Positions 31,481 to 54,554 of a stretch of DNA of 64,000 bases are shown one piece after another (positions within the stretch are counted from its first letter, which is position 1; each line of letters starts with the position of its first letter). The notes under the pieces are model-generated. The model ran no database searches, was not told the origin of the DNA, and saw only the letters and a program-made list of their open reading frames with translations. The position numbers were made by a program, and so were the translations under genes. Origin of the DNA: Sandaracinobacteroides saxicola (GTDB taxonomy: Bacteria; Pseudomonadota; Alphaproteobacteria; Sphingomonadales; Sphingomonadaceae); the NCBI RefSeq assembly GCF_014117445.1, contig NZ_CP059851.1, positions 1,178,001 through 1,242,000 on the forward strand, read 5' to 3'.

Positions 31481-31566
31481 GTGCGTTGCGGAAAAGTGGG
31501 AACCGATTTTCCGAAAAAATGCTCTATAACAGGAGATTAGTCCCCGATCCTGATACCATCAGGAGT
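31481..31566 (+). repeat. Convergent-gap hairpin repeat, copy A
   Basis: The copy starts one base after the receptor stop. Its 5' hairpin pairs CGGAAAA (31489-31495) with TTTTCCG (31507-31513); the outer GTGCATC/GATGCAC pairing of the other copies is degraded here. The linker AACAGGAGATTAGT is shared with copy B. The second hairpin is TCCTGAT-ACC-ATCAGGA (31548-31564). This is the most diverged of the three copies. Confidence 0.75.
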
Positions 31567-31595
31567 GACAGGACGAGGCGACGTGAAACGAGCAA

Positions 31596-31628
31596 AGAAA
31601 AAGGGCCGGGGGTTCGCACCCCCGGCCC
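31596..31628 (-). terminator. Intrinsic terminator of the serine protease gene
   Basis: GGGCCGGGGGT and ACCCCCGGCCC form a perfect 11-pair stem with loop TCGC (31603-31628). On the minus strand it is followed by TTTTTCTTT, so it is a textbook rho-independent terminator 18 bases after the protease stop. Confidence 0.9.
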
Positions 31629-31646
31629 TGATGTCTGTCCGCTGCC

Positions 31647-32822
31647 TCAGGCGGCGACGGCGGCGCGGCGGCGCAGCGCGCTGCCCACCATGCCGAAGCC
31701 GATGATCATCATCGCCCAGGTGGCCGGCTCGGGCACGGCCTGGAAGGCGGCGATATAGTCGCGGTGCAGATAGGTCGGCACATAGCCGCTGAACTCACCG
31801 CAGCTGCTGTTCAGGCCGGCGCGGCAATCGCCCCAGGCGGTGCCGAAGCTGAGGCCATAGCTGGTGACCGACGAGATCGCGCCACCGATGAACTGCGGAC
31901 CACCCGAGTCGCCGCCGGCAACGCCGACTTCGCGTGCGCCGACGCCGGTGTTGCAGAACACCACGCCGGCCGCGCCCGCCAGGTTGGACGCCTGCGCGAT
32001 GCGGCACGCCATGTCGTTGGCGGCACGGCCATTGTCGAAGTCGGACAGCCAGCTGTGCGCGATGTTCGGGTTGCTCGGGAACACCGTCTGCCAGCCATTG
32101 CCCGGGATCGCGCTGAACAGCGGGTCGCCCATGCGGTAATCATAGGTGTTGTCGCCCTCGCGCAGCCAGCCGGTCTGCGCATTGCTGCCAAACGCACCAC
32201 CGATGGTGGAACGCCCGCCATAGCCGGCGACGTTGAAGCCGAGACCGGTCAGGTCGTTGCCGGCATAGAGGTTGTAGGCGTCGATCGCGCGCTTCGTGCC
32301 ATCGGCGTCGATCACATTATACACGCCTTGGGACAGGCGCAGCATCGCGATGTCGTTATGGTCGATCACCTGGCCGGTGTAGCCGGCGTTGATCGACTGC
32401 TGCTGCGCCACCACCGCGCGGGCGTTGACGCTGAACGGCGTACGCTCGTTCGGGTTGTTGGTGAAGAAATAGGCGGTCGTCGTCGGCGTGATGCCGGCGC
32501 GCGGGTTGACGCAGTGCGCCGCGGTCAGAACGGTCACGCGATCGCTCAGCAGGCTGCCGGTGCAGATGAAGCGGCCTTGCGCGCCATAGTCCATGATCAG
32601 CGCCGCGACGCCGCTTTTGTTGGAGCTCGGGAAGAACAGCGGATCGCCGCCGCCGGTGCCCGGCTGCGGGTTGCTGGCCGTCGGCGTCATGCCCACGATC
32701 ATGTTGCGCGCCTCATAGGCCATGCCATTGAAGATGCCCGTTTGCGTGTTCGCGCTGGCCGGGGCGGCAAGCGCCGCAGCCAGGCCCATCGCGGCGCCGG
32801 TTGCTGTCAGAAATGCTTTCAT
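31647..32822 (-). CDS. Secreted trypsin-like serine protease with PEPxxWA-CTERM tail
   Basis: The 391-residue protein has a signal peptide (MKAFLTATGAAMGLAAALAA, cleaved near ASA). The S1 catalytic triad is His103 (LTAAHCV), Asp157 (HNDIAML) and Ser306 (GGDSGGPQ). It ends with VPEPATWAMM (363-372), a hydrophobic helix, and RRR: the PEPxxWA sorting signal common in sphingomonads, read by an exosortase-type system. Cys pairs at 87/104, 273/290 and 333/341 may form disulfides. It has its own terminator and a 265-base upstream gap to the LuxR gene. Confidence 0.9.
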   Translation of the reverse strand: MKAFLTATGAAMGLAAALAAPASANTQTGIFNGMAYEARNMIVGMTPTASNPQPGTGGGDPLFFPSSNKSGVAALIMDYGAQGRFICTGSLLSDRVTVLTAAHCVNPRAGITPTTTAYFFTNNPNERTPFSVNARAVVAQQQSINAGYTGQVIDHNDIAMLRLSQGVYNVIDADGTKRAIDAYNLYAGNDLTGLGFNVAGYGGRSTIGGAFGSNAQTGWLREGDNTYDYRMGDPLFSAIPGNGWQTVFPSNPNIAHSWLSDFDNGRAANDMACRIAQASNLAGAAGVVFCNTGVGAREVGVAGGDSGGPQFIGGAISSVTSYGLSFGTAWGDCRAGLNSSCGEFSGYVPTYLHRDYIAAFQAVPEPATWAMMIIGFGMVGSALRRRAAVAA

Positions 32823-33105
32823 CTTGATCCCCTATTGCAGTCTTGCGTGCCGGAAGTGGCGGGACCCCAGCGGCTGTATCAGGGCATCAGGAACAGCTGG
32901 CTGGTTGCGGTGCAGGATACGACCCCCCCTGTGCGCGACTTGCCACCCCCCGAAACCCCACCATCCGATGGGATTGCGTCATGGAAACCATAAATGCAAA
33001 ACAGTGTCAAATGCCTCGAGTGGAACTCGCGCGAAATTCGGCATCGCTATCGCCATAAGCGGCTGGAATGCGACAGTTCTGCAACACACCGTCGCCCGGC
33101 ACGGC

Positions 33106-33840
33106 TCAGCTCAACAGATCGCCGAAGCCCAGCTGCCCGTCATACAGCGCCCGCACCACCAGCTCGGTGCGGGAGGAGACGCCATAGCGCGCCTTCGCGC
33201 TCTCGATATATTTGTGCACCGTGTCGGGCGCCAGCCCCAGGATCTGCGCCGCCACCCAGTCGCTCTTGCCGCGCGCCGCCAGCACCACGCATTCCAGCTG
33301 CCGCTTGGTCAGCTTCGGCCCCTCGGGCCCGCCCTTGCCGGCCAGCTTCCGCGCCGCCTCGAACGCGAAGCAGGCCAGATACTGCGCCGCCGGCAGGCTT
33401 TCCCGCGGCAGCGCGCGATCCTGCGTCAGCACGAAGGAACAGAGCGCCGTCGCCTCGCCCGGGATGTGGATCGGCACGGTATAGCCCTTCGCCAGCCCGC
33501 GATTGGCGGCGGCGCGCATATAGCCCTGCTGCTTGCTGTTCATCGGGATGATGTCCGGCAGGTCGTCCCAGTTGAAGGGCGCCACGCTGCGCTGGCAGGC
33601 GGCCAGCACGGGATCATTCACCCAATAATCATTCTTGGCCAGCATGCCGATCCACTCCGGTGGATAGTCGGTCATCTGCACCGGGGCCTCGTCGATCCGC
33701 AGGCCATAACGTTGGGTCAGCGCATAATGGTCAAAGGAAAAGGCGCGCGTCGCGCAGGACAACTGCTCGGCGATTTCACCAAGGCTGTCTGCCTGCTTCA
33801 CATCCTCCACAAAAGCCTGAACGGTGGCGAAAGCCGTCAC
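33106..33840 (-). CDS. LuxR-family regulator with autoinducer-binding domain
   Basis: The protein has an N-terminal acyl-homoserine-lactone-binding-type domain. [20 protein letters not shown] keeps the Trp, Tyr and Asp-Pro positions of TraR/LuxR sensors. The C-terminal LuxR helix-turn-helix reads [20 protein letters not shown] and [15 protein letters not shown]. No luxI synthase lies in the window, so it is a candidate orphan ('solo') receptor. I prefer the GTG at 33840 because AAGGAG lies nine bases before it; an ATG at 33849 would have that site directly against it. It lies next to the secreted protease gene, a possible target. Confidence 0.88.
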
Positions 33841-34049
33841 CCTTTGCATCTCCTTTTCCCGGATGGTTGGCCCATCCGATTGTCGCAACCCTAACACCGG
33901 TCCCGGACAGGCGATGCTCCTGTCCGCCTACTCAGCACCGGCGTTCCTCCAGGACTCCCACCGCTGCATTGCGATGCTATATCACAGTCTCCCCCCCGCA
34001 CCATGCCGAATATCGGCATGAATGTGACAATTTTCGTAAAGGATTTCGC

Positions 34050-34589
34050 ATGACCGAAACCGCCATCTTCGCCAACGGCTGCTTCTGGTGCACCGAGGCG
34101 ATCTTCGACCGGGTGCGCGGCGTCCATTCGGTGGAGAGCGGCTATACCGGCGGCCATGTCGAGAACCCCCGTTACAAGGCGGTGTGCGGCGGCGACACCG
34201 GCCATGCCGAAGCGGTGCGCGTTACCTTCGACCCCGACGTCATCAGCTATGCCCAACTGCTCGACATCTTCTTCGCCACGCACGATCCGACCACGCTGAA
34301 CCGCCAGGGCAATGATGTCGGCCCCCAGTATCGCAGCGCCATCTTCCCGCAATCCCCGGCGCAGGAAGCCGAAGCAAGGGCTGCGATCGCCCGCGCCCAG
34401 GCCGACTGGCCGGCACCGATCGTCACCCGCATCGAACCCGCGGCGCCCTGGTATCCGGCCGAGGTCGAGCACCACGACTATTACGCCCGCGTCGGCGACG
34501 CCAACCCCTATTGCGCCTATGTCGTCGGACCGAAAGTGCGCAAGTTCCTGAAAACGCATGGCGAGCATGTAAAGCCCAGCCTTGGCTGA
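34050..34589 (+). CDS. msrA: Peptide methionine-S-sulfoxide reductase
   Basis: MsrA repairs the S-epimer of methionine sulfoxide in proteins. The 179-residue protein has the active-site GCFWC near the N terminus (catalytic Cys11), [18 protein letters not shown], and [17 protein letters not shown] lies eight bases before the ATG. It is followed, with an eight-base overlap, by a DUF817 membrane protein gene. Confidence 0.96.
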
Positions 34590-35436
34590 GCGCCGCACGC
34601 GCTTCGCGGGCGTCCGCGACCGGCTGGAGGGGCTGCGCTTCGCCTCGCCGCTTCATGCCGGTCTGTTCGAATTCCTGCTGTTCGGCTTCAAGCAGGCCTG
34701 GGCCTGCCTGTTCGGCGGGCTGATCCTGGCGCTGCTGCTGCTGACGCATTTTTTCTATCCGGCCGATGCCGCGCTGGCGCGCTATGATTTCCTGACGCTG
34801 GTGGTGCTCGCCATCCAGGTTGCGCTGCTGGCGCTGCGCCTGGAAACGCTGGCGGAGGCGCGCGTCATCCTGGCCTTCCACCTGGTCGGCACGGCGATGG
34901 AGCTGTTCAAGACCAGCATGGGCAGTTGGGTCTATCCCGAACCCGGCCTGCTGCGCATCGGCGACGTGCCCCTGTTCTCGGGCTTCATGTACGCCGCGGT
35001 CGGCAGCTACATCGCCCGCATCTGGCGCATCTTCGGCTTCCGCTTCACGGGATATCCGCCGGCCTGGCAACCGACGGTGCTGGCGGTCGCCATCTATGTC
35101 AATTTCTTCACCCACCATTTCGTGGCAGACGCGCGCTGGCTGCTGTTCGCCGCCTGCGGCTGGATCTTCCGCCGCACGATGGTGCGCTTCACCGTGTTCC
35201 GCACTGAGCGCGCCATGCCGCTGCTCGTCGGCTTCCTGCTGGTGGCGCTCTTCATCTGGTTCGCGGAAAATCTCGCCACCTTCGCCAATGCCTGGCGCTA
35301 TCCGCTCCAGTCCGCCGCCTGGACGATGGTGCCGCTGGCGAAGCTCGGCGCCTGGTACCTTCTGATGATCATCTCCTTCGTGCTGGTGTCACGCCTCCAC
35401 GCTATTTCACCCGCCACTTCTCGAACCAGTCGATGA
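34582..35436 (+). CDS. DUF817 family membrane protein
   Basis: The 284-residue protein has about eight hydrophobic segments and the DUF817 landmarks [36 protein letters not shown] and [15 protein letters not shown]. The function is unknown. It starts at TTG 34582, overlapping msrA, which suggests coupled translation. Its 3' end overlaps the convergent S9 peptidase gene by 35 bases, so the last dozen residues ([12 protein letters not shown]) are coded on both strands. Confidence 0.87.
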
Positions 35437-37444
35437 CCGCCAGGTTGCTTTGCAGCCACTGGCTGGGCCGCCCCATGCCGTGTGGCGCCTCCGGCAGCCG
35501 CACCATCCGCGCCGGCACGCCGCGCAGCTTCAGTGCGCCATAGACCTGCTCGGTCTGCGCGATCGGCGTGCGGAAATCGCTCTCCCCGGTGACCAGCAGC
35601 GTCGGCGTCTTCCACTTCGCCGCCAGGCTGACGGGCGAGCGGTTGTAATAATGCACCGGATCATCCCATGGCGCCTTGCCGTCGAGCCAGTATTTCCAGG
35701 TCACCGCGCCGATGTCGCTGATATAGGTCTGCAACGCCCAGTCGGTGACCGGCCGCAGCGCCGCGGCGGCGCGGAACTTGTCGGGTTCCTTGCCGATGCC
35801 CCACAGGGTCAGCACGCCGCCGCCGCTGCCGCCGGTGATGAACAGGTTGCGCCCGTCCACGAACGGTCGCTTCGCCACCTCGTCCACCGCGCTCATCAGG
35901 TCGTCATGATCCTGCCCCGGATAGGCGCCGGTGATGGCGTTGGCAAAGGCCTCGCCATAGCCGATCGAGCCGCGCGGGTTGGTGAACAGCACCACAAACC
36001 CACGCGCCGCATAGAGCGCGTGCGTCACGCTGAAGAAGGGGCCATAATCGGTGTTCGGCCCGCCATGGATGTCCAGGATCAGCGGATATTTCTTGGCCGG
36101 ATCGAAATCCGGCGGATAGAGCAGCCAGCCCTGCACCCGCCTGCCGTCGGCGCGGCTTTTGACATTGATTTCTTCAAGCCGACCGGCGCGCTTGCCCGCC
36201 GCCCAGCCGGCGTTGACATCGATGGCCGCGGTCTGCCGCCCGCCGCGTGCCACGCCCAGCCCGGCCGGACGGTCGGTGAAGGCGCTGGTGTAGGCGAAGG
36301 TGCCACGGGCATAGCCGAAGCCGCCGCCCGACGACGGCAGGTAGAGCCGCGTGCCGCCGATGCGCGGCACCTCCACCCGCTGCACCCTGCCATCCAGCCC
36401 GATGCGCGCGACGCGCGTGACGCCCTCGTCATTGTAGAAGGCAAGGACGCTGCGCCCGTCCTCCGCCCACTCCGCGGCCAGGATGGGCCGGTCGAGCGCG
36501 GCGGACAGTTTCACCGCGCCGGCGCCGGGCTTTGCATCCATCAGCCACAGTTCCGGCATGGCGTAGAATTTCGGTGCGTCCGGCCCGCCGATATAGGCGA
36601 TGCGCCGGCCATCGGGGGAGAGCGCGGCCGACGCCTCGATGCCCGGCGCGGAGGTCAGCTGGGTCGCCGCGCCACCCGCCGCCGGCACCAGCCACAGGTC
36701 GGCGTCATTGGCGCGCAGGTCGGCGTCGGCACCGCGATAGGCGCTGAACAGCAGGCTGCGGCCGTCGCGCGTCCATTCGATGCGGTCGCCGGCGTTGATC
36801 TGGTCCGTGTCGCCGCTGGTCAGCTGCGTGGTCTTGGCCGTTGCCACCTCGATGACAAACAGCTGCGCGGCGCCCGGCGTCACCCAGCCGGCGCCGTCGC
36901 GGCGATAGACCAGCTCCTCGGTGATGCGCGGCGCCGGCGCCCAGGTGGCGCCTTCAGGTTTCGCCGGCATGCCGCCGATCTCCAGCGGCTTGGCATCGAC
37001 CTGCGCGCCAAAGGCGATGCGGCTGCCGTCCGGCGACCAGGCTAGGCTCTGCGGCGCGGTTTTCTGCGTGCCGAGCGGCCGCGCAATACCGTCCGCCAGC
37101 GCCAGAATGAACAGCTGCGGCTTGCCCGCGACCGCGCCGACAAAGGCGATGCGGCTGCCATCAGGGCTGAACACCGCGCCGCCGGCGGACGTCGCCGCCG
37201 GCACCAGCAGGCGCTGGTCGAGCAGCCGGCCTTCGGCGTCGAGTGTCGCCAGCCACAGCTCGTTCTGCCGCCGGTCGCTGCTGATGTCGAAACTGGCGCG
37301 GGTGTACAGCACCCGCCGGCCATCGGGCGCCACCACGGGGTCGGTCACCATGGCAAGTCGGTACAGGTCGGCCGGCTCATAGGCGCTCGCCGCCTGCACG
37401 CCCCCCGCCGCCAGCAACAGCGCCACACCCGTCAGAAACCGCAT
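35402..37444 (-). CDS. S9 family prolyl oligopeptidase-like serine peptidase
   Basis: The 680-residue protein has a signal peptide (MRFLTGVALLLAAGGVQAAS), an N-terminal beta-propeller with repeated TolB-like phrases (FSPDGSRIAFVG, WSPDGSRIAFGA, LSPDGRRIAYIG), and a C-terminal alpha/beta hydrolase domain. The catalytic triad is Ser540 (GGSGGG), Asp623 (GESDFRTP) and His655 (APHGMG). It is probably periplasmic and cleaves oligopeptides. Divergent from the acyl-CoA dehydrogenase gene. Confidence 0.93.
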   Translation of the reverse strand: MRFLTGVALLLAAGGVQAASAYEPADLYRLAMVTDPVVAPDGRRVLYTRASFDISSDRRQNELWLATLDAEGRLLDQRLLVPAATSAGGAVFSPDGSRIAFVGAVAGKPQLFILALADGIARPLGTQKTAPQSLAWSPDGSRIAFGAQVDAKPLEIGGMPAKPEGATWAPAPRITEELVYRRDGAGWVTPGAAQLFVIEVATAKTTQLTSGDTDQINAGDRIEWTRDGRSLLFSAYRGADADLRANDADLWLVPAAGGAATQLTSAPGIEASAALSPDGRRIAYIGGPDAPKFYAMPELWLMDAKPGAGAVKLSAALDRPILAAEWAEDGRSVLAFYNDEGVTRVARIGLDGRVQRVEVPRIGGTRLYLPSSGGGFGYARGTFAYTSAFTDRPAGLGVARGGRQTAAIDVNAGWAAGKRAGRLEEINVKSRADGRRVQGWLLYPPDFDPAKKYPLILDIHGGPNTDYGPFFSVTHALYAARGFVVLFTNPRGSIGYGEAFANAITGAYPGQDHDDLMSAVDEVAKRPFVDGRNLFITGGSGGGVLTLWGIGKEPDKFRAAAALRPVTDWALQTYISDIGAVTWKYWLDGKAPWDDPVHYYNRSPVSLAAKWKTPTLLVTGESDFRTPIAQTEQVYGALKLRGVPARMVRLPEAPHGMGRPSQWLQSNLAVIDWFEKWRVK

Positions 37445-37615
37445 GCCTGCCCCCTTTTTTCCCGCGTGATCGCCGTCACGCCGCGATTGTTCACAAGGCC
37501 TTAGTCATGCCGCGTCGTCCGCGCCGTGGCAATGGCGACCTGTTGGCAAGCGCAGGCGACTTTTTCTGTGATCCCCACTAGCCTCCCCCGCATCATCCCG
37601 GGGGAGGCCTTTTTC

Positions 37616-38788
37616 TTGCAGACCGCATTCGACCGCTGGCGCGCCCGTTCGCCCTTCTACGACGAGAGCCACGAGGCCGTCGCCCAGTCCGTCCGCCGTT
37701 TCGTGGAGCGGGAAATCGCACCGCACATCGACCGTTGGGAAGCCGACGGCGAGCTGCCGCGCGAGTTGCATGTGAAGGCCGCCGCCGCCGGCATCCTCGG
37801 CCTCGGCTACCCGGAGGAATGGGGCGGCCATGCCCAGGGCTTCGACATCTTCCACAATTTCACCCAGTCGGAGGAACTGGCGCGCCCGGGTGCCGGCGGG
37901 CTGACAGCCAGCCTGATGACCCACGGCATCGGCCTGCCGCCCATCCTCGCCATGGGCAGCGACGAGCTGAAACGCCGCGTCGCCCCCGCCGTGCTGGCGG
38001 GCGAAAAGATCATCAGCCTGTGCATCACCGAACCGAGCGGCGGCAGCGACGTCGCCGCGCTGAAGACCCGGGCCGAAAAACGCGGCAACCACTGGGTGGT
38101 GAACGGTTCGAAAATGTTCATCACCAGCGGCATGCGCGCGGACTGGCTGACTGTGGCGGTGCGCACCGGCGGCCCCGGGATGGGCGGCATCAGCCTGTTC
38201 CTGATCGAGGCCGACCGGCCGGGCGTCAGCCGCACCCGCCTCGACAAGATGGGCTGGCGCTGCTCCGACACCGCCGCCATTCATTTCGACGATGTCGAAC
38301 TGCCGCCGGAAAACATGATCGGGCCGGAAAATGCCGGCTTCCTGGGCATCATGCGAAACTTCAACAGCGAGCGGCTGGGCATGGCGATGGGCTGCTGCGC
38401 CATGGCGCGGGTGTGCCTGGAGGAGGCCGTTTTGTGGGCACAGCAGCGCGAGACCTTCGGCAAGCCGCTTGTGAAGCACCAGTCGATCCGCATCAAGCTC
38501 GCCGACATGGCGCGGCAGATCGATGCCACCCAGGCCTGGACCGACCAGCTCGCCTGGCAGCACCGCGAGGGCAGGGGCCAGCCCGCCGACTATGCCATGC
38601 TGAAGGTGCAGGCGACCCGCATGCTGGAGGCGGTGGCGCGCGATGCCGCCCAGGTGCTGGGCGGCGCCAGCTACATCACCGGCAGCAAGGTGGAGCGCAT
38701 CTACCGCGAGGTGCGGGTGAACGCCATCGGCGGCGGCAGCGAGGAAATCATGCTCGACCTGGCCGGTCGCCAATTGTTCGGAGGCTGA
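37616..38788 (+). CDS. Acyl-CoA dehydrogenase
   Basis: The 390-residue FAD enzyme has CITEPSGGSDVAALKTRAEK, GSKMFITSGMRADW, RETFGKPLVKHQSIRIKLAD and QVLGGASYITGSKVERIYRE. It resembles long-chain or branched acyl-CoA dehydrogenases; the substrate is not clear. The start is placed at TTG 37616 because GGGGAGG lies eight bases before it, and the longer upstream frame carries no family sequence. The SDR gene follows after one base, so the two are co-transcribed. Confidence 0.9.
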   Translation: MQTAFDRWRARSPFYDESHEAVAQSVRRFVEREIAPHIDRWEADGELPRELHVKAAAAGILGLGYPEEWGGHAQGFDIFHNFTQSEELARPGAGGLTASLMTHGIGLPPILAMGSDELKRRVAPAVLAGEKIISLCITEPSGGSDVAALKTRAEKRGNHWVVNGSKMFITSGMRADWLTVAVRTGGPGMGGISLFLIEADRPGVSRTRLDKMGWRCSDTAAIHFDDVELPPENMIGPENAGFLGIMRNFNSERLGMAMGCCAMARVCLEEAVLWAQQRETFGKPLVKHQSIRIKLADMARQIDATQAWTDQLAWQHREGRGQPADYAMLKVQATRMLEAVARDAAQVLGGASYITGSKVERIYREVRVNAIGGGSEEIMLDLAGRQLFGG

Positions 38789-47110: not shown

Positions 47111-47431
47111 ATGACCGACCTGCATGACCGTGAGACGGCATTCGAAAACAAGTTCGCGCATGATGCCGAGGTGGAGTTCCGCGTCACCGCGCGCCGCAAC
47201 CGGCTGCTGGGTCAGTGGGCCGCCGGCCTGCTCGGCCTGACACCGGCTGAAACCGACAGCTACGCCAAGTCCGTCGTGCAGGCCGATTTCGAGGAAGCCG
47301 GCGACGAGGATGTCATCCGCAAGCTGCTGGGCGACCTGGTGCGCGGTGGCCACAACATCTCCGACCTGGAGGTGCGCAACATGCTCGCCGTCAAGACCGC
47401 CGAAGCCCGCGCCCAGATCGAGGCCGCCTGA
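47111..47431 (+). CDS. DUF1476 protein, F1-ATPase inhibitor zeta subunit
   Basis: DUF1476 proteins are the zeta subunit that blocks ATP hydrolysis by F1F0-ATPase in alphaproteobacteria. The 106-residue product has the family core LHDRETAFENKFAHDAEVEF and ARRNRLLGQWAAGLLGL, and a C-terminal part rich in Glu and Asp. The ATG is at 47111; a GTG three bases upstream is possible. bolA begins at its stop codon. Confidence 0.9.
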   Translation: MTDLHDRETAFENKFAHDAEVEFRVTARRNRLLGQWAAGLLGLTPAETDSYAKSVVQADFEEAGDEDVIRKLLGDLVRGGHNISDLEVRNMLAVKTAEARAQIEAA

Positions 47432-47679
47432 TGCCGATGGCGGGCGCAGACATCGCCGCGATGATCCGCGCCGGCGTGCCCGACGCCGAGGTGACGATGA
47501 CCGACCTTGCCGGCGACAATGATCACTGGGCCGCCCGTGTCGTGTCCCCCGCCTTCGCCGGCCTGCCGCGCGTCAAGCAGCACCAGATGGTCTACAACGC
47601 GCTTGGCGGCCGCATGGGCGGCGTGCTCCACGCCCTGCAACTCACCACCGCGGTTCCCGATACCGCTGCCCAGAATTGA
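47431..47679 (+). CDS. BolA family protein
   Basis: BolA proteins pair with monothiol glutaredoxins to handle [2Fe-2S] clusters. The 82-residue protein has the core FAGLPRVKQHQMVYNALG with the conserved His that ligates the shared cluster. It starts at the last base of the DUF1476 stop and is followed by grxD after 11 bases. Confidence 0.92.
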   Translation: MPMAGADIAAMIRAGVPDAEVTMTDLAGDNDHWAARVVSPAFAGLPRVKQHQMVYNALGGRMGGVLHALQLTTAVPDTAAQN

Positions 47680-47690
47680 AGGAAACGCCC

Positions 47691-48011
47691 ATGAGCGACG
47701 TGCAAGCCCGCATCACCGCCCTCCTCAACGAACATCCTGTGGTGCTGTTCATGAAGGGCACCGCGCTGTTCCCGCAGTGCGGCTTCAGCAGCCGCGCCAT
47801 CGCCATCCTGGAACATGTCGGCGTGGAACCCTTCACCGTCGACGTCCTGCAGGATCCGGAAATCCGCAGCGGCATCAAGGAATATAGCGACTGGCCGACC
47901 GTGCCGCAGCTCTACATCAAGGGCGAGTTCGTCGGCGGCAGCGACATCATGATGGAGATGTACGAGGCCGGCGAGCTCCAGGCGCTGGTGGCGGACGCCG
48001 GCCTTGCCTGA
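47691..48011 (+). CDS. grxD: Monothiol glutaredoxin, Grx4 family
   Basis: Grx4-type glutaredoxins carry [2Fe-2S] clusters with BolA. The 106-residue protein has the CGFS motif (Cys30-Ser33) after PVVLFMKGTALFPQ, the glutathione site WPTVPQLYIKGEFVGGSDI, and a full-length thioredoxin fold. GAAGGAAACG before the ATG is a clear ribosome binding site. The neighbouring bolA supports the partner role. Confidence 0.96.
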   Translation: MSDVQARITALLNEHPVVLFMKGTALFPQCGFSSRAIAILEHVGVEPFTVDVLQDPEIRSGIKEYSDWPTVPQLYIKGEFVGGSDIMMEMYEAGELQALVADAGLA

Positions 48012-48876
48012 GGGTCGGCTCAGCCTCTCGGCGCTCTGGCTGGAAACGCTGGAAAGTTTCAACGCCCACCGCACCATCTTCATCACGCTGGCGGCCGCGT
48101 TCATCTTCCTGCCGCAGATGGCGCTGGCGCTGCTCATGCCGTCGCTCGGCGACACCGCGTCGGTGCAGAAGATGATGACGGAGGGCGCCCCCCCCTGGCT
48201 GTTCCCGATGATCGCGGTCATCCTCCTCATCAACCTGCTGGCCATCGTGCCCATCACCCGTGTCGTCCTCGGCCTCGTCGCGCCGCAGGAGACGGTCGGC
48301 GCGATGCTGCTGGACACGCTTTCCCGCCTGCCGCGCATGATCCTCGCCGGGCTCTGGCTGGTCCTGCTCTACCTCGGCGTCACGCTGCTGCTGTCGATCC
48401 CCTTCGCCATCATCCTCACCGTCGTCGCGATGGCCGCGCCGAAGGCCGTCACCACCACCGGCGGGCCGGTCACGGTGGTGCTGATCGCCGCCATGCTTGC
48501 CGTCCTCCTCTACCTCGGCGCCCGCGTCGCGGTCTGGTTCCCGGTCCTGATCGCGGAAAACCTCGGCGCCCGCGCCACCGTCCGCCGCGCCTGGTCGCTC
48601 ACGCGCGGTCAGGCCTCGCGCATCCTGCTCATCCTGCTGGCGCTGACATTCGCCGCGATACTGGTGTCGGCGCTGTTCTTCGCGCTCGGTTCGGCGGTCG
48701 GCGTCGTGGGGCAGACGGCGGGCGGCGCCAGCATCGGGCTCCTGTTGTTCCAGCTCGTCAACTCGGGCTTCAGCGCGCTGTTCGGCCTCTTCTTCTACAT
48801 CCTGTTCGCCCTGATGTACCGCCGCCTCGCGCAGCTCGACGGCTCACTCCCGCGCCACAACCCGCAGCTGCGCTAG
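48004..48876 (+). CDS. Multipass membrane protein, GPDPase membrane-domain-like
   Basis: The 290-residue protein has six hydrophobic segments and the pattern ARATVRRAWSLTRGQASRIL, a feature of the family related to the membrane domain of glycerophosphodiester phosphodiesterases. No catalytic domain is present, so the function is unknown. It starts with TTG 48004, overlapping grxD by eight bases. A repeat element starts one base after its stop. Confidence 0.82.
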   Translation: MPEGRLSLSALWLETLESFNAHRTIFITLAAAFIFLPQMALALLMPSLGDTASVQKMMTEGAPPWLFPMIAVILLINLLAIVPITRVVLGLVAPQETVGAMLLDTLSRLPRMILAGLWLVLLYLGVTLLLSIPFAIILTVVAMAAPKAVTTTGGPVTVVLIAAMLAVLLYLGARVAVWFPVLIAENLGARATVRRAWSLTRGQASRILLILLALTFAAILVSALFFALGSAVGVVGQTAGGASIGLLLFQLVNSGFSALFGLFFYILFALMYRRLAQLDGSLPRHNPQLR

Positions 48877-48877
48877 A

Positions 48878-48973
48878 GTGCATCGCGGAAAAGTGGAAAC
48901 CGGTTTTTCGCAAAAGATGCACGACAACAAAAGATTAGACCGCCATTTTGATCCGATCAAAATGGCGGTCTAA
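48878..48973 (+). repeat. Convergent-gap hairpin repeat, copy B
   Basis: The 5' hairpin has outer arms GTGCATC (48878-48884) and GATGCAC (48916-48922) and inner arms GCGGAAAA and TTTTTCGC. The linker GACAACAAAAGATTAGA follows. The second hairpin has arms TTAGACCGCCATTTTGATC (48935-48953) and its exact complement (48955-48973), 19 pairs if fully extended. It includes the stop codon of hemF on the other strand. This is the best-preserved copy. Confidence 0.85.
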
Positions 48974-49863
48974 GCCCACCTTGCCTCGGGCGGCAGGCTC
49001 ATCAGGATCGCGTCGATGTTGCCCCCGGTCTTCAGCCCGAACAGCGTCCCCCGGTCGTGCACCAGGTTGAACTCGGCATAGACCCCGCGATAGCGCAACA
49101 GCACATCGCGTTCGTCCTCGCTCCACGGCATCCCCATCCGTGCCCGCACAATCGCCGGAAACGCCCGCAGGAACGCCTCCCCCACGTCCCGTGTGAAGGC
49201 GAAATTGGAGTCGAAATCGCCCTCCAGATGGTCATAGAAAATGCCGCCCACCCCGCGATGCCGGTTGCGGTGCGGCACCCAGAAATACTCGTCGCACCAT
49301 TTGCTGAACCGCTCCCAATGCTCCGGGTCATGCGCGTCGCAGGCCACCTTCAGCTCGGCCTTGAACGCCGCGGTGTCGTCGTCGCGGGGAAGGGCGGGGT
49401 TCAGGTCCGCGCCGCCCCCGAACCAGCGCCGCGTGGTGTTCAGGAACCGCGTGTTCATGTGCACCGCCGGCACATGCGGGTTCGCCATGTGCGCCACCAG
49501 GCTGATGCCGGTCGCGAAAAAGCGCGGATCCTCCTCCGCGCCATTCATGTTCTTCGCGAATTCCGGCGAGAACTCGCCATGCACGGTCGAGATGTTCACG
49601 CCCACCTTCTCGAACACCCGCCCCTTCATCACCCCCATCACGCCGCCGCCGCCCGGCGAGCCATCGGGGTTCGCCCGGTCCCACGCCGTCCGCACGAACC
49701 GCCCGGGCGCCGCCGGCGCGTTCGGCAGCAGCGGCACGGCATGCGCTTCATCCTCGCCCGCGTCATCCTCGATCGCCTCGAACGCGGCGCAGATGCGGTC
49801 CCGCAGGCTCCGGAACCAGGCCTCCGCTGCCGCCTGCTGCTCATCCAGCACAAAATCAGTCAT
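48970..49863 (-). CDS. hemF: Oxygen-dependent coproporphyrinogen III oxidase
   Basis: HemF converts coproporphyrinogen III to protoporphyrinogen IX with oxygen. The 297-residue protein has the family motifs VNISTVHGEFSPEFAKNM, HMNTRFLNTTRRWFGGGADL, FSKWCDEYFWVPHRNRHRGV and EFNLVHDRGTLFGLKTGGN. The start is at ATG 49863, overlapping trmL by eight bases. An anaerobic HemN gene is not in the window. The stop lies within the second hairpin of repeat copy B. Confidence 0.97.
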   Translation of the reverse strand: MTDFVLDEQQAAAEAWFRSLRDRICAAFEAIEDDAGEDEAHAVPLLPNAPAAPGRFVRTAWDRANPDGSPGGGGVMGVMKGRVFEKVGVNISTVHGEFSPEFAKNMNGAEEDPRFFATGISLVAHMANPHVPAVHMNTRFLNTTRRWFGGGADLNPALPRDDDTAAFKAELKVACDAHDPEHWERFSKWCDEYFWVPHRNRHRGVGGIFYDHLEGDFDSNFAFTRDVGEAFLRAFPAIVRARMGMPWSEDERDVLLRYRGVYAEFNLVHDRGTLFGLKTGGNIDAILMSLPPEARWA

Positions 49864-50305
49864 GAAATCCGCCCGTTGCCCGCAAAGCCTCGCCCAGCAC
49901 CATCGCCGCTGCCACCGCAACATTCACCGAGCGCGCCGGCGGCACAAGCGGAATTCGCACCGACGCAGCGGCCGCTTCATGCACGAACGCCGGTGCCCCC
50001 GCCGATTCCCGCCCCAGCAGCAGCACGTCGTCCGCCCGCCAGCTGAAATCCACATGGCGCCCCGCGCCGCGCGTGCTCAGCAGCACCAGCCGGCCCGGCG
50101 TCGCCGCCACGAACGCCGCCCAGTCCGCATGCCGCGTCACGTCCGCCAGCCCGGCATAATCCATCGCCGACCGCCGCACCGCGTGCAGGCTGAACGGAAA
50201 GCCGCACGGCTCGATCACGTCCAGCGCCACCCCCAGCGCCGCGCACAGCCGGATGATCGTCCCCACATTGCCCGCTTGGTCCGGCTGAAACAGCGCCATC
50301 CGCAT
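49856..50305 (-). CDS. trmL: tRNA (cytidine(34)-2'-O)-methyltransferase
   Basis: TrmL methylates the wobble base ribose of two leucine tRNAs. The 149-residue SPOUT protein begins RMALFQPDQAGNVGTIIRL, has CGFPFS and RRSAMDY, and ends with the knot motifs LGRESAGAP and RIPLVPPARSVNVAVAAAM. The size and the SPOUT-only form fit TrmL rather than larger SpoU enzymes. It is divergent from the haloalkane dehalogenase gene. Confidence 0.94.
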   Translation of the reverse strand: MRMALFQPDQAGNVGTIIRLCAALGVALDVIEPCGFPFSLHAVRRSAMDYAGLADVTRHADWAAFVAATPGRLVLLSTRGAGRHVDFSWRADDVLLLGRESAGAPAFVHEAAAASVRIPLVPPARSVNVAVAAAMVLGEALRATGGFHD

Positions 50306-50362
50306 AATGCGTATTGAAACTCCGTGAAATTCGCGCGAACCTCGCCGCAAGGGAGATTCGTG

Positions 50363-51265
50363 ATGACCGTCCTTCGCACAGCAGATGCCGCTTTCGAAGC
50401 CCTCGAAGCCTGGCCCTACACCCCGCACTACACCATGATCGACGGCGGCGCCCTCGGCCCCCTGCGCCTCGCCCACCATGCGGACGGCCCCGCCGGCGGC
50501 CAGCCCATTCTCTGCCTGCACGGCGAACCCAGCTGGAGCTACCTCTACCGCAAGATGCTCCCCCGCTTTGCTGCCGCCGGCCACTTCGCGCTGGCGCCCG
50601 ACCTGATCGGCTTCGGCCGCAGCGACAAGCCCGCCGACCAGGCGGCCTACAGCTACAACGGCCATGTCGGCTGGATGCTGGACTGGCTCGACCGGCAGCA
50701 GCTCAGCAACATCACGCTGTTCTGCCAGGATTGGGGCGGCCTCATCGGCCTGCGCCTCGTCGCCGCCCGGCCGCATCTTTTCGCCCGCGTCGCCGTCAGC
50801 AACAGCTTCCTGCCGACCGGCGAGGGCAAGCCGAGCGAGGCCTTCCTCGCCTGGCAGGCCTACAGCCAGCGGGTCGAGGATTTCGACTGCGGCTGGATCC
50901 TGAACGGCGGTACCGCGCGCGGCATCAGCGATGGCGCAAAGGCCGCCTACCGCGCCCCCTTCCCGACGGACGCGCACAAGGCCGGCGCCCGCCGTTTCCC
51001 CCTGCTGGTCCCCACCGCGCCCGACACGCCCGGCGCCGCGGAAAACCGCGAGGCCTGGAAGACCCTCGAGACCTTCGACAAACCTTTCCTCACCCTGTTC
51101 GGCGATTCCGATCCCGTCACCGCCGGCGCCGACCGGGTGCTGCAATCCCGCATCCCCGGCGCGAAGGGCCAGCCCCACCGCACCATCGCCCGCGCCGGCC
51201 ATTTCAGCCAGGAAGACGCCGGCGAGGAACTGGCCGACGCAGTGATCGCCTGGATTGCGGTCTAG
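50363..51265 (+). CDS. Haloalkane dehalogenase, subfamily I-like
   Basis: The enzyme hydrolyses carbon-halogen bonds through an ester intermediate. The 300-residue alpha/beta hydrolase has the oxyanion motif HGEPSWSYLYRKM (53-65), the nucleophile Asp123 in CQDWGG with the halide-binding Trp124, a catalytic acid near Asp248/Asp250 (FGDSDPV), and His280 in AGHFSQED. The start is at ATG 50363 with GGGAG seven bases upstream. Natural substrates of such enzymes are mostly unknown; this one could also be an ordinary hydrolase. Confidence 0.85.
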   Translation: MTVLRTADAAFEALEAWPYTPHYTMIDGGALGPLRLAHHADGPAGGQPILCLHGEPSWSYLYRKMLPRFAAAGHFALAPDLIGFGRSDKPADQAAYSYNGHVGWMLDWLDRQQLSNITLFCQDWGGLIGLRLVAARPHLFARVAVSNSFLPTGEGKPSEAFLAWQAYSQRVEDFDCGWILNGGTARGISDGAKAAYRAPFPTDAHKAGARRFPLLVPTAPDTPGAAENREAWKTLETFDKPFLTLFGDSDPVTAGADRVLQSRIPGAKGQPHRTIARAGHFSQEDAGEELADAVIAWIAV

Positions 51266-51324
51266 GATCAGACCCCGTTGACGCCCGCCGTCGATGCTGC
51301 GACGCTTCGGTACAGGAGGCCTCC

Positions 51325-51696
51325 ATGCTCACCAATGCCCAGGCCATGACCTTCGTCCTCACCCGCGACCGCGCGCTGTCGCTGCCCTTCTACCGCGACG
51401 TCCTCGGCCTGACGCTGGTGGGGGAGGACCCGTTCGCCGCCACCTTCGATCTGGCCGGCACGATCCTGCGGCTCACCAGCCTGCCCGATCACACGCCGTC
51501 GCCGCATACCGTGTTGGGGTGGGAAGTCCCCGACATCCGCGCCGCCGTGGCGCAACTGCGGGCAAAAGGCGTGGAACCGATCATCTACGAGGGCTTCGGC
51601 CAGGATGCCGACGGCGTGTGGAGCGACGGCCGGGCGAAAATCATCTGGTTCGCCGATCCGGAGGGCAACAACCTCTCGCTGAAAGAGGCTTCTTGA
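51325..51696 (+). CDS. VOC (glyoxalase/bleomycin resistance) superfamily protein
   Basis: The 123-residue protein has the VOC beta-alpha-beta-beta-beta pattern: TFVLTRDRALSLPFYRDVLG, then WEVPDIRAAVAQLRAKGVEP, ending in KIIWFADPEGNNLSLKE. The first His ligand of metal-binding members is replaced by Thr/Val in TFVLT, so it may not be a classical glyoxalase I. AGGAGG lies five bases before the ATG. The function is unknown. Confidence 0.85.
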   Translation: MLTNAQAMTFVLTRDRALSLPFYRDVLGLTLVGEDPFAATFDLAGTILRLTSLPDHTPSPHTVLGWEVPDIRAAVAQLRAKGVEPIIYEGFGQDADGVWSDGRAKIIWFADPEGNNLSLKEAS

Positions 51697-51738
51697 CACC
51701 CGCGCCCGCGCCCCATAAACGCGCCGCCTACCCAGTGC

Positions 51739-51815
51739 GCGGGTGTAGCTCAGTTGGTTAGAGTATCGGCCTGTCACGCCGAGGGTCGCGGGTTCAAGTC
51801 CCGTCACTCGCGCCA
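51739..51815 (+). tRNA. tRNA-Asp (anticodon GTC)
   Basis: The 77-base cloverleaf is complete. Acceptor arm GCGGGTG pairs with CACTCGC (one G-T pair). The D-loop reads AGCTCAGTTGGTTAGAG, the anticodon loop CTGTCAC has GTC at 51773-51775, and the T-loop reads GGGTTCAAGTCCC. The discriminator is G and CCA is encoded. The last 22 bases are overlapped on the other strand by the end of the UdgX-fusion gene. Confidence 0.97.
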
Positions 51816-53212
51816 TTTTCCCCCTCCACAAACGCCGCCGCCGCGCGCAGGTCGCTGACCAGCGCCGCCAACGCCGCATCCCGCGCCGCCGCATCCGGCA
51901 CCCGCAGCACCGCGCTCGGGTGCGCCGTGATCAGCCCCGCGGTCCCGTCCGGCAGCGCGAACACCCGCCCGCGTTCCTTCCCGATCGCCACCGCACGGCC
52001 GGTCAGGCTGCGCGCCGCCACCGCGCCCAGCATCACCGTCAGCGTCGGCGCCACCGCCTTGCGTTCCGCATTCAGCCACCAGCGGCACGCCTCGATCTCG
52101 CTCACATCCGCCTTGTCGTGGATGCGCCGCGGGCCGCGCTGCTCGAATTTGAAATGCTTGACGGCATTGGTCACATAAAGCCGCGCCCGATCCACCCCGG
52201 CCGCCGCCAGCGCCTGGTCCAGCAACTGCCCCGCCGGCCCCACGAACACCCGGCCCGCCACATCCTCCTGGTCGCCCGGCTGTTCCCCCACCAGCATCAG
52301 CCGGGCATCCGCCGGCCCCTCGCCGAACACCGTCTGCGTCGCCGGGCCGAACAAGGGGCAGCGCTTGCACCGCGCCGCCTCCGCCCGCAACCCGGTCAGG
52401 GCGGCGGCCGCGCCCTCCTCCTGATCGCCTTCCGGCATTGCCCGTTCCAGCATCGCCACCGTCCGCGCCTGCGCGCCGGCGATCATCCCGGGGATCAGCG
52501 CCGCCTCCGGCATGTTCTTCCAATATTTCTTCGGCATCTCGCTGGTCATCGCCTTCACCTTCAACCGCGCCGGATTGAAGATGCTGCTGAAATAGGTCTG
52601 CCAGATCGCCTCCACCGGGTCTTCCGCCGGCGCATCCCCCCGCGCCGCGCCCGGCAGGAAGGACAGCCCGGCCCCGTCCCAGTGCGCGCTGGCGTCGGGT
52701 GTCAGGATGGTCCAGCGCTGGTTGGCGAAGCGCCGAACGAAGAACCCGGCATTGAACCGCAGGATGTGATGCTCCGGCTCGAACCAGGCGATGAAATGCC
52801 CGCCCGCGTCATCCGCCACCTCGCGGAACCGCACGAACGCCCGCATCTTGTGCACGTCCCGCCCCACTCTTTTGGCCATCGCCTCCAGCCGGTCCACCAG
52901 CGGATCGGCCCGGTCCTGCAACAGCTTCGGCGCCGCCTGCAACCGCACCAGCGCCTGGTGCAGCAGCCGGAACCGCTCGCCGTCGCGGTGGCAGACCACG
53001 CGCTGCGCCAGCTCGATGAACCCGCGCGGCACCCGCAACGCCGCCGCTGGCGCCGCGTCCCGCTCCGGCTCGGTTCCGAACAGGTCGGGCGTCGTCACCC
53101 CCGCCACCTGCCAGTCGACATCGCCGGGCGGAACGCTCTCGCCCGTCAACCGCCGCGCCGCGGCGCGCCAGCCGTCGAAATCGGCCGGATGGTTCAGCAG
53201 GACCGTGGGCAT
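51794..53212 (-). CDS. DUF4130 - UdgX uracil-DNA glycosylase-family fusion
   Basis: The 472-residue protein joins an N-terminal DUF4130 domain (about residues 1-265) to a uracil-DNA glycosylase domain (about 270-465). The second half has CKRC (282-285), GEQPGDQED (309-317), VKHFKFEQRGPRRIHDKA with RRIH (His365), and HPSAVLR (431-437). The RRIH loop marks the UdgX branch, in which His forms a covalent bond with the uracil site. C282, C285 and C376 are candidate iron-sulfur ligands. A radical SAM protein of the family that co-occurs with these domains is encoded at 54555. Its 3' end lies under tRNA-Asp. Confidence 0.92.
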   Translation of the reverse strand: MPTVLLNHPADFDGWRAAARRLTGESVPPGDVDWQVAGVTTPDLFGTEPERDAAPAAALRVPRGFIELAQRVVCHRDGERFRLLHQALVRLQAAPKLLQDRADPLVDRLEAMAKRVGRDVHKMRAFVRFREVADDAGGHFIAWFEPEHHILRFNAGFFVRRFANQRWTILTPDASAHWDGAGLSFLPGAARGDAPAEDPVEAIWQTYFSSIFNPARLKVKAMTSEMPKKYWKNMPEAALIPGMIAGAQARTVAMLERAMPEGDQEEGAAAALTGLRAEAARCKRCPLFGPATQTVFGEGPADARLMLVGEQPGDQEDVAGRVFVGPAGQLLDQALAAAGVDRARLYVTNAVKHFKFEQRGPRRIHDKADVSEIEACRWWLNAERKAVAPTLTVMLGAVAARSLTGRAVAIGKERGRVFALPDGTAGLITAHPSAVLRVPDAAARDAALAALVSDLRAAAAFVEGENGASDGT

Positions 53213-53274
53213 CGGCGCGCCACACTGGATTTGCCGGCAACAGGCGCTACCATGCGCCGCGAAGGGAAACGTCC

Positions 53275-53958
53275 ATGGCCTCGATCCCGCCCGCCGTCCT
53301 CGCCGCCCGCAACGCCGTCCGCCAGCGCGCCCGCGACATGATCCGCAGCCACGAGGATTTCATCAACTACATGTACCTCGATTCCGTCAGCAAGGTGACG
53401 GTTGGCGTCGGCACCATGCTGCCCAGCGCGGCCGAGGCCGCGACGGTCAACATGGCGGACAAGACCGGCAAGCCCGCCACCGATGCCCAGGTGCGCGCCG
53501 AATGGAAACGCGTGCAGGACATCTCGCCCGCCGGCACCCCGCGCAACTTCAAGGCCAGCAGCTACCGCGACGCCGCCACGCTGTTCATCTCCGAAACCGA
53601 AGGCAACCGCCTGCTCGACCTGAAACTCGATGGCTTCATGACCATGATCCTCGGCTGGTTTCCGAAATTCCATGATTTTCCCGCCGACGGGCAGGTCGCG
53701 ATCATCGACATGACCTACAACCTCGGCAACCTGAAAAAGAAATTCCCGTCGCTGGTGAAAGCCGTGCAGAAATCCCCGCCGGACTGGGCGGAAGCCGCGA
53801 AACAGTCGAACCGCCCGCAGCTCAGCGCCGAACGCAACAAGGAAACCCGCAACCTGTTCCTCGCCGCCGATAAGGCCGCCCGCGCCGCCGCCAAAAGCCC
53901 CACCGGCCAGTCGCTGCGGCCCCCTCCCGCCACCAGCACGCCGCCCCGCCTGCCATGA
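53275..53958 (+). CDS. Lysozyme-like protein (T4 lysozyme/GH24-type fold)
   Basis: The 227-residue product has Glu27 (SHEDFINYMYLD), Asp36 and Thr42 (KVTVGVGTML). Their spacing of 9 and 6 residues equals that of Glu11, Asp20 and Thr26 in T4 lysozyme. DMTYNLGNLKKKFPSLVKAV also fits the GH24 fold. There is no signal peptide or membrane segment. No phage genes surround it, so it is unlikely to be a prophage endolysin. The C-terminal 30 residues are Pro/Thr-rich and may be disordered. Its stop overlaps the next gene by four bases. Confidence 0.78.
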   Translation: MASIPPAVLAARNAVRQRARDMIRSHEDFINYMYLDSVSKVTVGVGTMLPSAAEAATVNMADKTGKPATDAQVRAEWKRVQDISPAGTPRNFKASSYRDAATLFISETEGNRLLDLKLDGFMTMILGWFPKFHDFPADGQVAIIDMTYNLGNLKKKFPSLVKAVQKSPPDWAEAAKQSNRPQLSAERNKETRNLFLAADKAARAAAKSPTGQSLRPPPATSTPPRLP

Positions 53959-54461
53959 CGGCCGCCAGAACGCACGCGCTGATCGCGCTGGCGCTGCTGC
54001 TCGCCGCCTGCAAGCCCGACACGCCGGCCCAACCGGTGTCACCGGCCGAACCGGCCAAAGCCACCACCCCGCCGACCGCCCCCGTCGCCCCCGCCCCCTC
54101 ACAGGCGCCCGCCGCGATCGATCCGGCGCTGCTCGGCGCATGGCAACCCTATTCCCCCGGCAGCCAGGCGATGGGCGAACTCACCGTCACCCCCACCGGC
54201 CTCCGCTTCGCCAACGGCTTCAGCTTCCCCGTCACGCCCACCCCCACGCACCTCCTCCTGGGCACCGCCGGCGGCAAGGCGGCCATCGCCGATTTCTGCG
54301 GCAAGGCACCCCCCCGCGCCGCCACCCTGCGCCTCGACCCGCGCACCGATCGCGCCGTCCTGGCGCTCAGCCTGTACGACAGCGCCACCGGTCCCGGCCC
54401 CAACCCGGATTTCGACCCCGGCCTGTGCATGCGGGTCACCTTCGTCCGCGCCACGCCCTGA
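53955..54461 (+). CDS. Predicted lipoprotein of unknown function
   Basis: The 168-residue product has a type II signal peptide with lipobox LLAAC (Cys19), a Pro/Ala/Thr-rich linker (about 20-55), and a compact C-terminal domain that starts LLGAWQPYSPGSQAMGELTV. It has a Cys pair at FCGK and LCMR that may form a disulfide. No family is recognised. It overlaps the lysozyme-like gene by four bases, so the two are probably one operon; the pair may act in the periplasm if the lysozyme-like protein is exported. Its stop lies in the second hairpin of repeat copy C. Confidence 0.75.
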   Translation: MTAARTHALIALALLLAACKPDTPAQPVSPAEPAKATTPPTAPVAPAPSQAPAAIDPALLGAWQPYSPGSQAMGELTVTPTGLRFANGFSFPVTPTPTHLLLGTAGGKAAIADFCGKAPPRAATLRLDPRTDRAVLALSLYDSATGPGPNPDFDPGLCMRVTFVRATP

Positions 54462-54554
54462 CCATGCATTTTGGCGGGCCCAAAATGCATGGTCAGGTTT
54501 TTGTCGTCGTGCATCTCTATGCGGAAAACCGGTTCCCCCATTTCCGCGATGCAC
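54458..54554 (-). repeat. Convergent-gap hairpin repeat, copy C
   Basis: Read on the minus strand, the copy starts directly after the radical SAM gene stop. Its 5' hairpin has outer arms GTGCATC and GATGCAC (54548-54554 and 54509-54515) and perfect inner arms GCGGAAA and TTTCCGC. The linker GACGACAAAAACCTGA follows. The second hairpin has arms CTGACCATGCATTTTGG (54458-54474) and its exact complement (54480-54496), 17 pairs. The second-stem sequence is unrelated to that of copy B. Confidence 0.85.

What the first reader, a model, noticed from the sequence alone, without database searches (positions are those of the whole stretch)
31481..54554. Three-copy repeat with a conserved first hairpin and a covarying second hairpin
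Copies at 31481-31566 (+), 48878-48973 (+) and 54458-54554 (-) share a 5' unit, roughly GTGCATCGCGGAAAAGTGG...CCGGTTTTCCGC...GATGCAC, and a linker like GACAACAAAAGATTAGA. The second hairpin keeps full pairing but not sequence: TTAGACCGCCATTTTGATC, CTGACCATGCATTTTGG and TCCTGAT are each matched by an exact complement. Preserved pairing with unrelated arms suggests selection on structure. The layout recalls the intergenic mosaic elements of rhizobia, but that is from memory.
Basis: partly seen in the sequence, partly recalled or inferred. Interest (0 to 1): 0.72.

Follow-up and report, generated by a model that had tools for sequence, protein, structure and literature searches.

The report
Mobile hairpin pair that rebuilds stop codons
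A short two-hairpin mobile DNA element, a sphingomonad cousin of repeats known in rhizobia and Caulobacter, often sits exactly on the stop codon of a neighbouring gene and supplies a replacement stop codon from its own end, so it can spread without breaking that gene.

Summary
The three copies are real, at the stated coordinates, and are 3 of 33 confident copies in this 3.36 Mb genome. Both hairpins covary. The second-hairpin arms are mostly related, not unrelated. It is a small non-autonomous mobile element: three copies are 98-99% identical from TAGAGTGC to GGGTCTA, with unrelated flanks. Relatives with the same plan lie on named Rhizobium, Bradyrhizobium, Allorhizobium, Martelella and Sphingobium plasmids. 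Occupied/empty alleles there show insertion at Y-T-R-G sites, leaving TA at both junctions at four readable loci. The left edge coincides with the upstream gene's stop codon in 15 of 20 assessable own copies, but only 2 of 15 in Sphingomonas formosensis. In Bradyrhizobium the empty site is two overlapping stop codons; a relative of window copy 2 is arranged likewise. A resident IS630-type transposase with TAGAG ends is the likeliest helper, not shown. In 13 of 33 own copies hairpin 2 plus linker resembles an opposite-strand terminator, without association with convergent genes. The CcrM site of CIR elements is at chance level here but enriched in relatives. New variant of a known kind.

The parts
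31477..31479 (+). copy 1: TAG stop codon of the upstream TonB-receptor gene (29236-31479) = left edge of the element
31481..31524 (+). copy 1: hairpin 1
   Evidence: model R1 match 57.8 bits
31525..31537 (+). copy 1: linker (degenerate)
31548..31564 (+). copy 1: remnant of hairpin 2 (TCCTGAT/ATCAGGA)
31602..31629 (-). separate terminator-like site of the convergent gene 31647-32789, outside the element
48874..48876 (+). copy 2: TAG stop of the upstream gene (48004-48876, GPDPase membrane-domain protein)
48878..48922 (+). copy 2: hairpin 1
   Evidence: 80.2 bits
48923..48934 (+). copy 2: A-rich linker (T-tract on the opposite strand)
48935..48973 (+). copy 2: hairpin 2, 18 pairs; terminator-like on the minus strand
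48970..48972 (-). copy 2: TAG stop of the convergent coproporphyrinogen oxidase gene (48970-49863), made of the element's right-hand CTA
54555..54557 (-). copy 3: TAA stop of the upstream radical-SAM gene (54555-55775, minus)
54509..54554 (-). copy 3: hairpin 1
   Evidence: 72.7 bits
54498..54508 (-). copy 3: A-rich linker
54457..54497 (-). copy 3: hairpin 2, 18 pairs; terminator-like on the plus strand; holds the TGA stop (54459-54461) of the convergent gene 53955-54461

Best explanation
A roughly 100-bp non-autonomous mobile element (MITE-like) of the alphaproteobacterial two-hairpin kind (CIR/RIME-like). Shown: its bounds are TAG|AG...hairpin 1...A-rich linker...hairpin 2...TCTA; near-identical copies sit in unrelated flanks; in rhizobial relatives insertion occurs in a Y-T-R-G tetramer and leaves TA at both junctions at four readable loci (CTAG...CTAG at three in Rhizobium, CTAA...TTAG in Bradyrhizobium). 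TA plus the element's first purine therefore acts as stop codon for the gene entering from the left, and the right-hand TA can do so for a gene on the opposite strand; insertion into a stop codon, even into two overlapping stop codons of convergent genes, then spares both. Inferred: YTAG is rare and often lies at stop codons or between genes, which explains much of the stop-codon placement. Inferred: an IS630-family transposase (two identical copies here, ends TAGAGTCTGTCCT, target T-TA-G) moves it in trans. Inferred: the stems are kept paired because the DNA hairpins or their RNA matter for the element's spread and tolerance. In this genome hairpin 2 plus the linker often also resembles an intrinsic terminator for the opposite strand.
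For: 33 own copies at E<=0.001. Identity among L055/L056/L057 runs from TAGAGTGC to GGGTCTA and ends there. TAG stands directly before the element in 17 of 33 own copies. Left edge at -1..+1 of an in-frame stop codon in 15 of 20 own copies with a detectable upstream gene (of 33), and in 28 of 43 (of 80) named loci fetched by a pattern containing TAG but not its frame. TAG is 9 of 15 of those own stops against 18 of 122 other genes, Fisher p=2.9e-4. Right-hand stop made by the element: own 2 of 2 readable, G011 4 of 7, G181 0 of 1, named set 4 of 8. Empty/occupied pairs: fba locus, empty TTAG once and CTAG three times; Bradyrhizobium 186/195, empty TTAG with CDS 149-931 (+) and 928-1979 (-) overlapping in their stop codons. 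A relative has homologues of window copy 2's neighbours ending in one shared TTAG without element. CTAG occurs 7 times in the window outside the elements against about 190 from composition; of 16 YTAG sites 4 are stop codons, 8 intergenic, 4 coding. IS630-type IS. No Y1_Tnp match in this genome.
Against: At two of four readable loci (betC, VOC) the empty alleles seen read CTGG or TTGG (4 and 2 records), so a plain TA target duplication does not fit them. At a fifth locus (DedA) the occupied allele begins CTGG-AGC, without TA on the left, and the empty alleles are too diverged to read. In S. formosensis (G011) only 2 of 15 assessable copies abut a stop codon, although TAG precedes 16 of 27. The own excess at stop codons over YTAG sites (15 of 33 against 4 of 16) is not significant (p=0.22), so selection for stop codons is not shown. 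The IS630 ends share only TAGAG(T) with the element's left end and TAGA with the right; six of eight copy-bearing genomes searched lacked a DDE_3 match. No empty allele of an own copy is available (only genome of its genus held); the copy-2 comparison is with another genus.
Confidence: 0.64

Rival explanations
1. It is chiefly a functional 3'-end cassette: hairpin 1 right behind the stop codon protects or regulates the upstream mRNA (as REPs within 15 nt of a stop do in E. coli), and hairpin 2 plus the linker terminates transcription of the opposing gene; selection keeps copies at stop codons.
For: Zero distance to the stop codon. Opposite-strand terminator-like sites in 13 of 33 own copies against 1 of 33 forward and none in simple shuffles. 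Copies 2 and 3 each provide a terminator-like site on the convergent gene's strand. The E. coli REP effect is described in PMC12306157 and PMC5082802 (passages read).
Against: Terminator-like copies are no commoner where a convergent gene exists (7 of 18) than elsewhere (6 of 15); relatives rarely show it (1 of 27, 1 of 15, 9 of 75). Insertion-site choice already predicts many stop-codon positions; the excess over YTAG sites is not significant. Copy 1 has lost most of hairpin 2 beside a gene with its own terminator-like site.
Confidence: 0.22
2. A REP-like element moved by a Y1 (RAYT/IS200-type) transposase: a tetramer (YTRG) precedes the hairpin and is not duplicated.
For: A short tetramer at the hairpin foot and an imperfect hairpin with conserved mismatched tip, as in REPs (recalled). 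Left tetramers vary (CTAG, TTAG, TTGG, CTGG), and one occupied Rhizobium allele begins with CTGG. Y1 genes occur in three of seven other copy-bearing genomes.
Against: No Y1_Tnp match in this genome, although the same search rings in 5 of 14 control genomes. CTAG stands at both junctions where the empty site has CTGG, which a no-duplication model also fails to predict.
Confidence: 0.08
3. The second hairpins are ordinary host terminators next to which a one-hairpin element landed, so H2 is not part of the element.
For: Some second hairpins have unrelated sequence (L058, L079) and some copies have none.
Against: A recurrent H2 core in most of 13 own copies aligned, three copies identical through H2 to its end, and the 112-115 nt occupied/empty difference at fba, betC and VOC includes H2.
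Confidence: 0.04

Closest known systems
CIR elements of Caulobacter/Brucella (CcrM-associated intergenic repeats, Chen & Shapiro 2003; not held; seen through passages and Table 1 of PMC2229807)
   Same: About 110 bp, two inverted-repeat arms joined by a linker, TA at the termini, intergenic, no ORF. Uncultured Caulobacteraceae loci in the named set carry this hairpin 1 and a GANTC in the centre of the second arm.
   Different: GANTC in the H2 region is at chance here (4 of 33, expected 3.5) but enriched in relatives (11/27, 7/15, 32/75); 3 of 13 aligned own second hairpins hold it, none of the window's three. The review marks the CIR target duplication with a question mark; here junctions are read from empty alleles of relatives.
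RIME elements of Rhizobium (Osteras 1995; not held, only mentions seen)
   Same: The Rhizobium element used for the empty-site test is a two-palindrome intergenic repeat of about 112-119 bp found at many places.
   Different: Identity with RIME1/2 could not be checked against the published sequence; arms, linker and H2 of the sphingomonad copies differ.
Bru-RS of Brucella and REP/Br-REP elements (PMC2267715, PMC5082802, passages)
   Same: Short palindromic intergenic repeats; [quoted passage not shown]
   Different: The Br-REP consensus sequences given there do not resemble this one by eye; no Bru-RS sequence was seen. REPs are short palindromes, many with GTAG/CGTC tags and RAYT partners (PMC3733652, PMC2817692: start of abstract in listings only, rest recalled).
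IS630-family MITEs such as RUP (PMC2229807, passages)
   Same: TA at the ends; an IS with TAGAG ends in a YTAG target is present here.
   Different: No long terminal inverted repeat shared with the IS; two separate hairpins; helper not demonstrated.

Membership tests
[quoted passage not shown]
   (about 100 nt)
[quoted passage not shown]
   4 of 33 own copies, expected 3.5; none of the window's three; enriched in relatives
[quoted passage not shown]
   (not in every copy)
[quoted passage not shown]
   paper not held
RIME | sequence match to RIME1/RIME2 | not testable with these tools
   paper not held
REP/REPIN with RAYT | Y1 transposase in the genome | tested here: not met
REP/REPIN with RAYT | short palindrome with GTAG/GGAG or CGTC tag | tested here: not met
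   two different hairpins with linker; commonest left tetramers CTAG/TTAG, GTAG in 2 of 33
IS630-type MITE | TA target duplication | tested here: inconclusive
   fits two of four readable loci; two have CTGG/TTGG empty alleles
IS630-type MITE | terminal sequence shared with a resident IS | tested here: inconclusive
   only TAGAG(T)/TAGA shared
Rfam families | covariance-model match at gathering threshold | tested here: not met
   four matches in the window, none at the three copies

The most novel reading that the evidence does not exclude
Across Alphaproteobacteria this element is a self-adapting insertion that usually brings its own TA, and with it a stop codon for each strand, whatever the target (CTAG, TTAG or CTGG), and that is at home in the seam between convergent genes. 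Exchanging the central TR of the target for TA...TA is not a normal target duplication and would need an unusual transposition chemistry.
Probability: 0.26. Interest if true: 0.75.

Novelty: new variant of a known kind. Interest (0 to 1): 0.52.

Why it matters
Two-hairpin repeats of this kind are described in alphaproteobacteria as intergenic sequences of unknown function, and the review seen here leaves the CIR target duplication open. Empty/occupied pairs give the target and the exact unit. The stop-codon rule gives a simple reason why such repeats can sit exactly at gene ends and be tolerated, and it is directly testable with one transposase.

Tried and rejected
Rfam scan at gathering threshold: no family at these sites. 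Y1/RAYT mobiliser: no match in the genome. Exact-pattern scan for this genome's subtype in named genomes: nothing (the tool notes that the own genome may be left out). Terminator function tied to convergent genes: no association. Excess of stop-codon sites beyond YTAG choice: not significant. H2 as host terminator: rejected. Class-wide copy counts (11 of 190) are lower bounds because only 29 candidates per genome were scored. MAFFT misaligned the Bradyrhizobium pair; the BLAST junctions were used instead. DedA empty alleles too diverged. The Allorhizobium pair was not informative: L305 is also occupied and L306 too different. Of 120 stretches found (a capped scan), the 80 listed were analysed and 40 not; five of the 80 were too short for the H2 counts. 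The gene caller is a home-made codon-score caller trained on the window and was applied unchanged to other genomes. The stop-codon background (122 genes) may count some window genes twice. Controls are simple letter shuffles. The hairpin scorer misses bulged stems and picked some hairpins that are not H2.
Full report
1. Observation. The hairpin-1 core GCGGAAAAGTGGNAACCGGTTTTCCGC matches the window three times within 3 mismatches, with none in 100 shuffles. A model of hairpin 1 plus linker, built from 16 own copies, finds 37 copies at E<=0.01 and 33 at E<=0.001 in the genome. No Rfam family matches there at gathering threshold.

2. Structure. Hairpin 1: 97.6% of 288 cells paired, 5 pairs with changes on both sides, 19 such cells against 5.5 in shuffles (0 of 500 reach it), and the slid structures fall far below. 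Hairpin 2, from 13 own copies that I chose because a related second hairpin was recognisable or strong: 81.7% of 208 cells paired, 11 pairs with two-sided changes, 24 cells against 8.0 (0 of 500). By eye two of these 13 rows are misaligned. The arms are mostly related: TAGACCCGCATTTTGATnCCATCAAAATGCGGGTCTA is the commonest form, L058 is unrelated, and copy 1 is a decayed member. So 'unrelated arms' is an overstatement, but covariation is real. Because the copies are related, shuffles are only a guide.

3. Unit and mobility. L055, L056 and L057 are 98-99% identical from TAGAGTGC to GGGTCTA, and their flanks differ at once on both sides. This is a roughly 100-nt unit that moved recently.

4. Relatives. 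In the family, 13 of 59 genomes (one per genus, own included) have a match at E<=0.001; G011 has 27 copies. A contig of the same length (352,618) with the same copy in the named set (L231) identifies G011 as Sphingomonas formosensis. In the class sample 11 of 190 genomes, own included, match at 1e-6, a lower bound. The same plan is on plasmids of Allorhizobium ampelinum, Rhizobium, Martelella, Bradyrhizobium and Sphingobium.

5. Position. TAG stands directly before the element in 17 of 33 own copies. Of the 33, 20 have a detectable same-strand gene ending within -300..+30 of the element; in 15 its stop codon ends at -1..+1. In the named set the pattern forces a TAG, but not its frame: it is the in-frame stop of the upstream gene in 28 of 43 assessable loci (of 80). 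S. formosensis is an exception (2 of 15 assessable, of 27), and G181 gives 2 of 4 (of 15). TAG makes up 9 of the 15 own stops but 18 of 122 of other genes (p=2.9e-4), so the TAG most likely belongs to the element. The right end (...TCTA) supplies the TAG of a convergent gene in 2 of 2 own copies where both could be read, 4 of 7 in G011, 0 of 1 in G181 and 4 of 8 in the named set. Window copy 2 does both: its TAG ends the upstream gene (GPDPase membrane-domain family) and its CTA ends the coproporphyrinogen oxidase gene.

6. Empty sites. At the fba locus of Rhizobium, three occupied alleles (L142, L307, L308) read ggCTAG-AGC...GTT-CTAGcc; four empty ones read TTAG (L302) or CTAG (L303, L309, L322). 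In Bradyrhizobium sp. 195 the empty site is gacTTAGtcc and the annotated convergent genes overlap there by their stop codons (CDS 149-931 plus, 928-1979 minus). In Bradyrhizobium sp. 186 the element lies between, with CTAA on the left and TTAG on the right, and both genes keep a stop codon. At betC all four empty alleles fetched read CTGG (L313, L314, L319, L320), whereas the occupied one is CTAG...CTAG and betC stops two codons early at the element's TAG. At the VOC locus empties read CTGG or TTGG (L317, L321); L318 carries a shortened occupied allele, and the annotated VOC gene of L311 runs on into hairpin 1. At DedA the occupied allele begins CTGG-AGC and ends CTAG, and the empty alleles cannot be read. 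The target is therefore Y-T-R-G, and TA appears at both ends at four loci, including two where the target had TG: a TA duplication at two loci, unexplained at two, and one occupied allele without TA on the left.

7. A relative of window copy 2. In G272 (same family, other genus) a GPDPase-domain homologue (tblastn 23.6% identity, E=1.9e-10; Pfam GPDPase_memb E=1.1e-5, below the curated cut-off) and the coproporphyrinogen oxidase gene (67% identity) are convergent, carry no element and share a TTAG with overlapping TAG and TAA stops. Six of the 19 loci examined had a GPDPase hit; only in this one do the two genes abut.

8. Why stop codons. CTAG is depleted: 7 sites outside the elements in 64 kb against about 190 from composition. 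Of 16 YTAG sites, 4 are stop codons, 8 intergenic and 4 coding. A YTAG-seeking element would thus often hit stop codons, and its own purine after TA restores them. The own excess (15 of 33 against 4 of 16) is not significant (p=0.22), so target choice plus tolerance suffices. CTGG, in contrast, is common in coding DNA (567 of 591 sites), so such insertions would mostly be lost (inference).

9. Helper. The genome has two identical 1,053-bp IS630-type elements (DDE_3) with ends TAGAGTCTGTCCT in a T-TA-G target. It has no Y1_Tnp match. IS630's preference for TA in CTAG is recalled, not looked up. Six of eight copy-bearing genomes lacked DDE_3, so this helper is plausible for this genome and S. 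formosensis only.

10. Terminator reading. The linker is A-rich: 5.8 A in the 10 nt before the hairpin against 1.4 T after it, over 11 own hairpins. A terminator-like site on the opposite strand occurs in 13 of 33 own copies against 1 of 33 forward and none in shuffles. It is uncommon in relatives (1 of 27, 1 of 15, 9 of 75) and not tied to convergent genes (7 of 18 against 6 of 15). For copies 2 and 3 the scan finds the site on the convergent gene's strand; copy 1's neighbour has its own. This may be a by-product.

11. What is known. CIR elements match in plan and TA ends, but their defining CcrM site is at chance level here and enriched in relatives. An N6/N4 methylase gene of about CcrM's size (size recalled) is present (372-aa frame), so the site, not necessarily the enzyme, is missing. 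RIME and CIR papers are not held. The listings of searches showed me no description of the stop-codon rule or of the target, within an open-access library only; most listed papers were not opened.

Noticed in passing
own genome 2419010-2419064 (L072) and 1747458-1747512 (L074): Hairpin-1-only copies lie directly in front of what read as tRNA genes (sequence reading only; ARAGORN not run).
   Followed up: no
own genome L107, L109, L053: A hairpin-1-like core lies in open frames read by eye as QQKW(E/A)PVL(R/H)P, at a gene end just before a GTPase-like start (L107) or near a gene start (L109); recalls Rickettsia palindromic elements inside genes.
   Followed up: partly
own genome L077-L082: A second subtype (GCATCGCGC(C/A)AAAAAGTGGGAACCGG and the like) coexists; L078 has an H2 like that of the Sphingomonas formosensis copies.
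   Followed up: partly
own genome 3156354 and 3360807 (L327, L328): Two identical IS630-type elements, ends TAGAGTCTGTCCT.
   Followed up: partly
L139 versus L305: About 100 nt with further inverted repeats lie immediately left of the element in Allorhizobium ampelinum S4 and are absent in Agrobacterium vitis VAT03-9.
   Followed up: no
L318 (Rhizobium ruizarguesonis TP23): A shortened occupied allele that has lost most of the linker and second hairpin.
   Followed up: no
window 23713-23921: Tandem glycine riboswitch aptamers (Rfam) upstream of the gene at 23961.
   Followed up: no
window, whole: CTAG depleted: 7 sites outside the elements against about 190 expected from base composition.
   Followed up: yes
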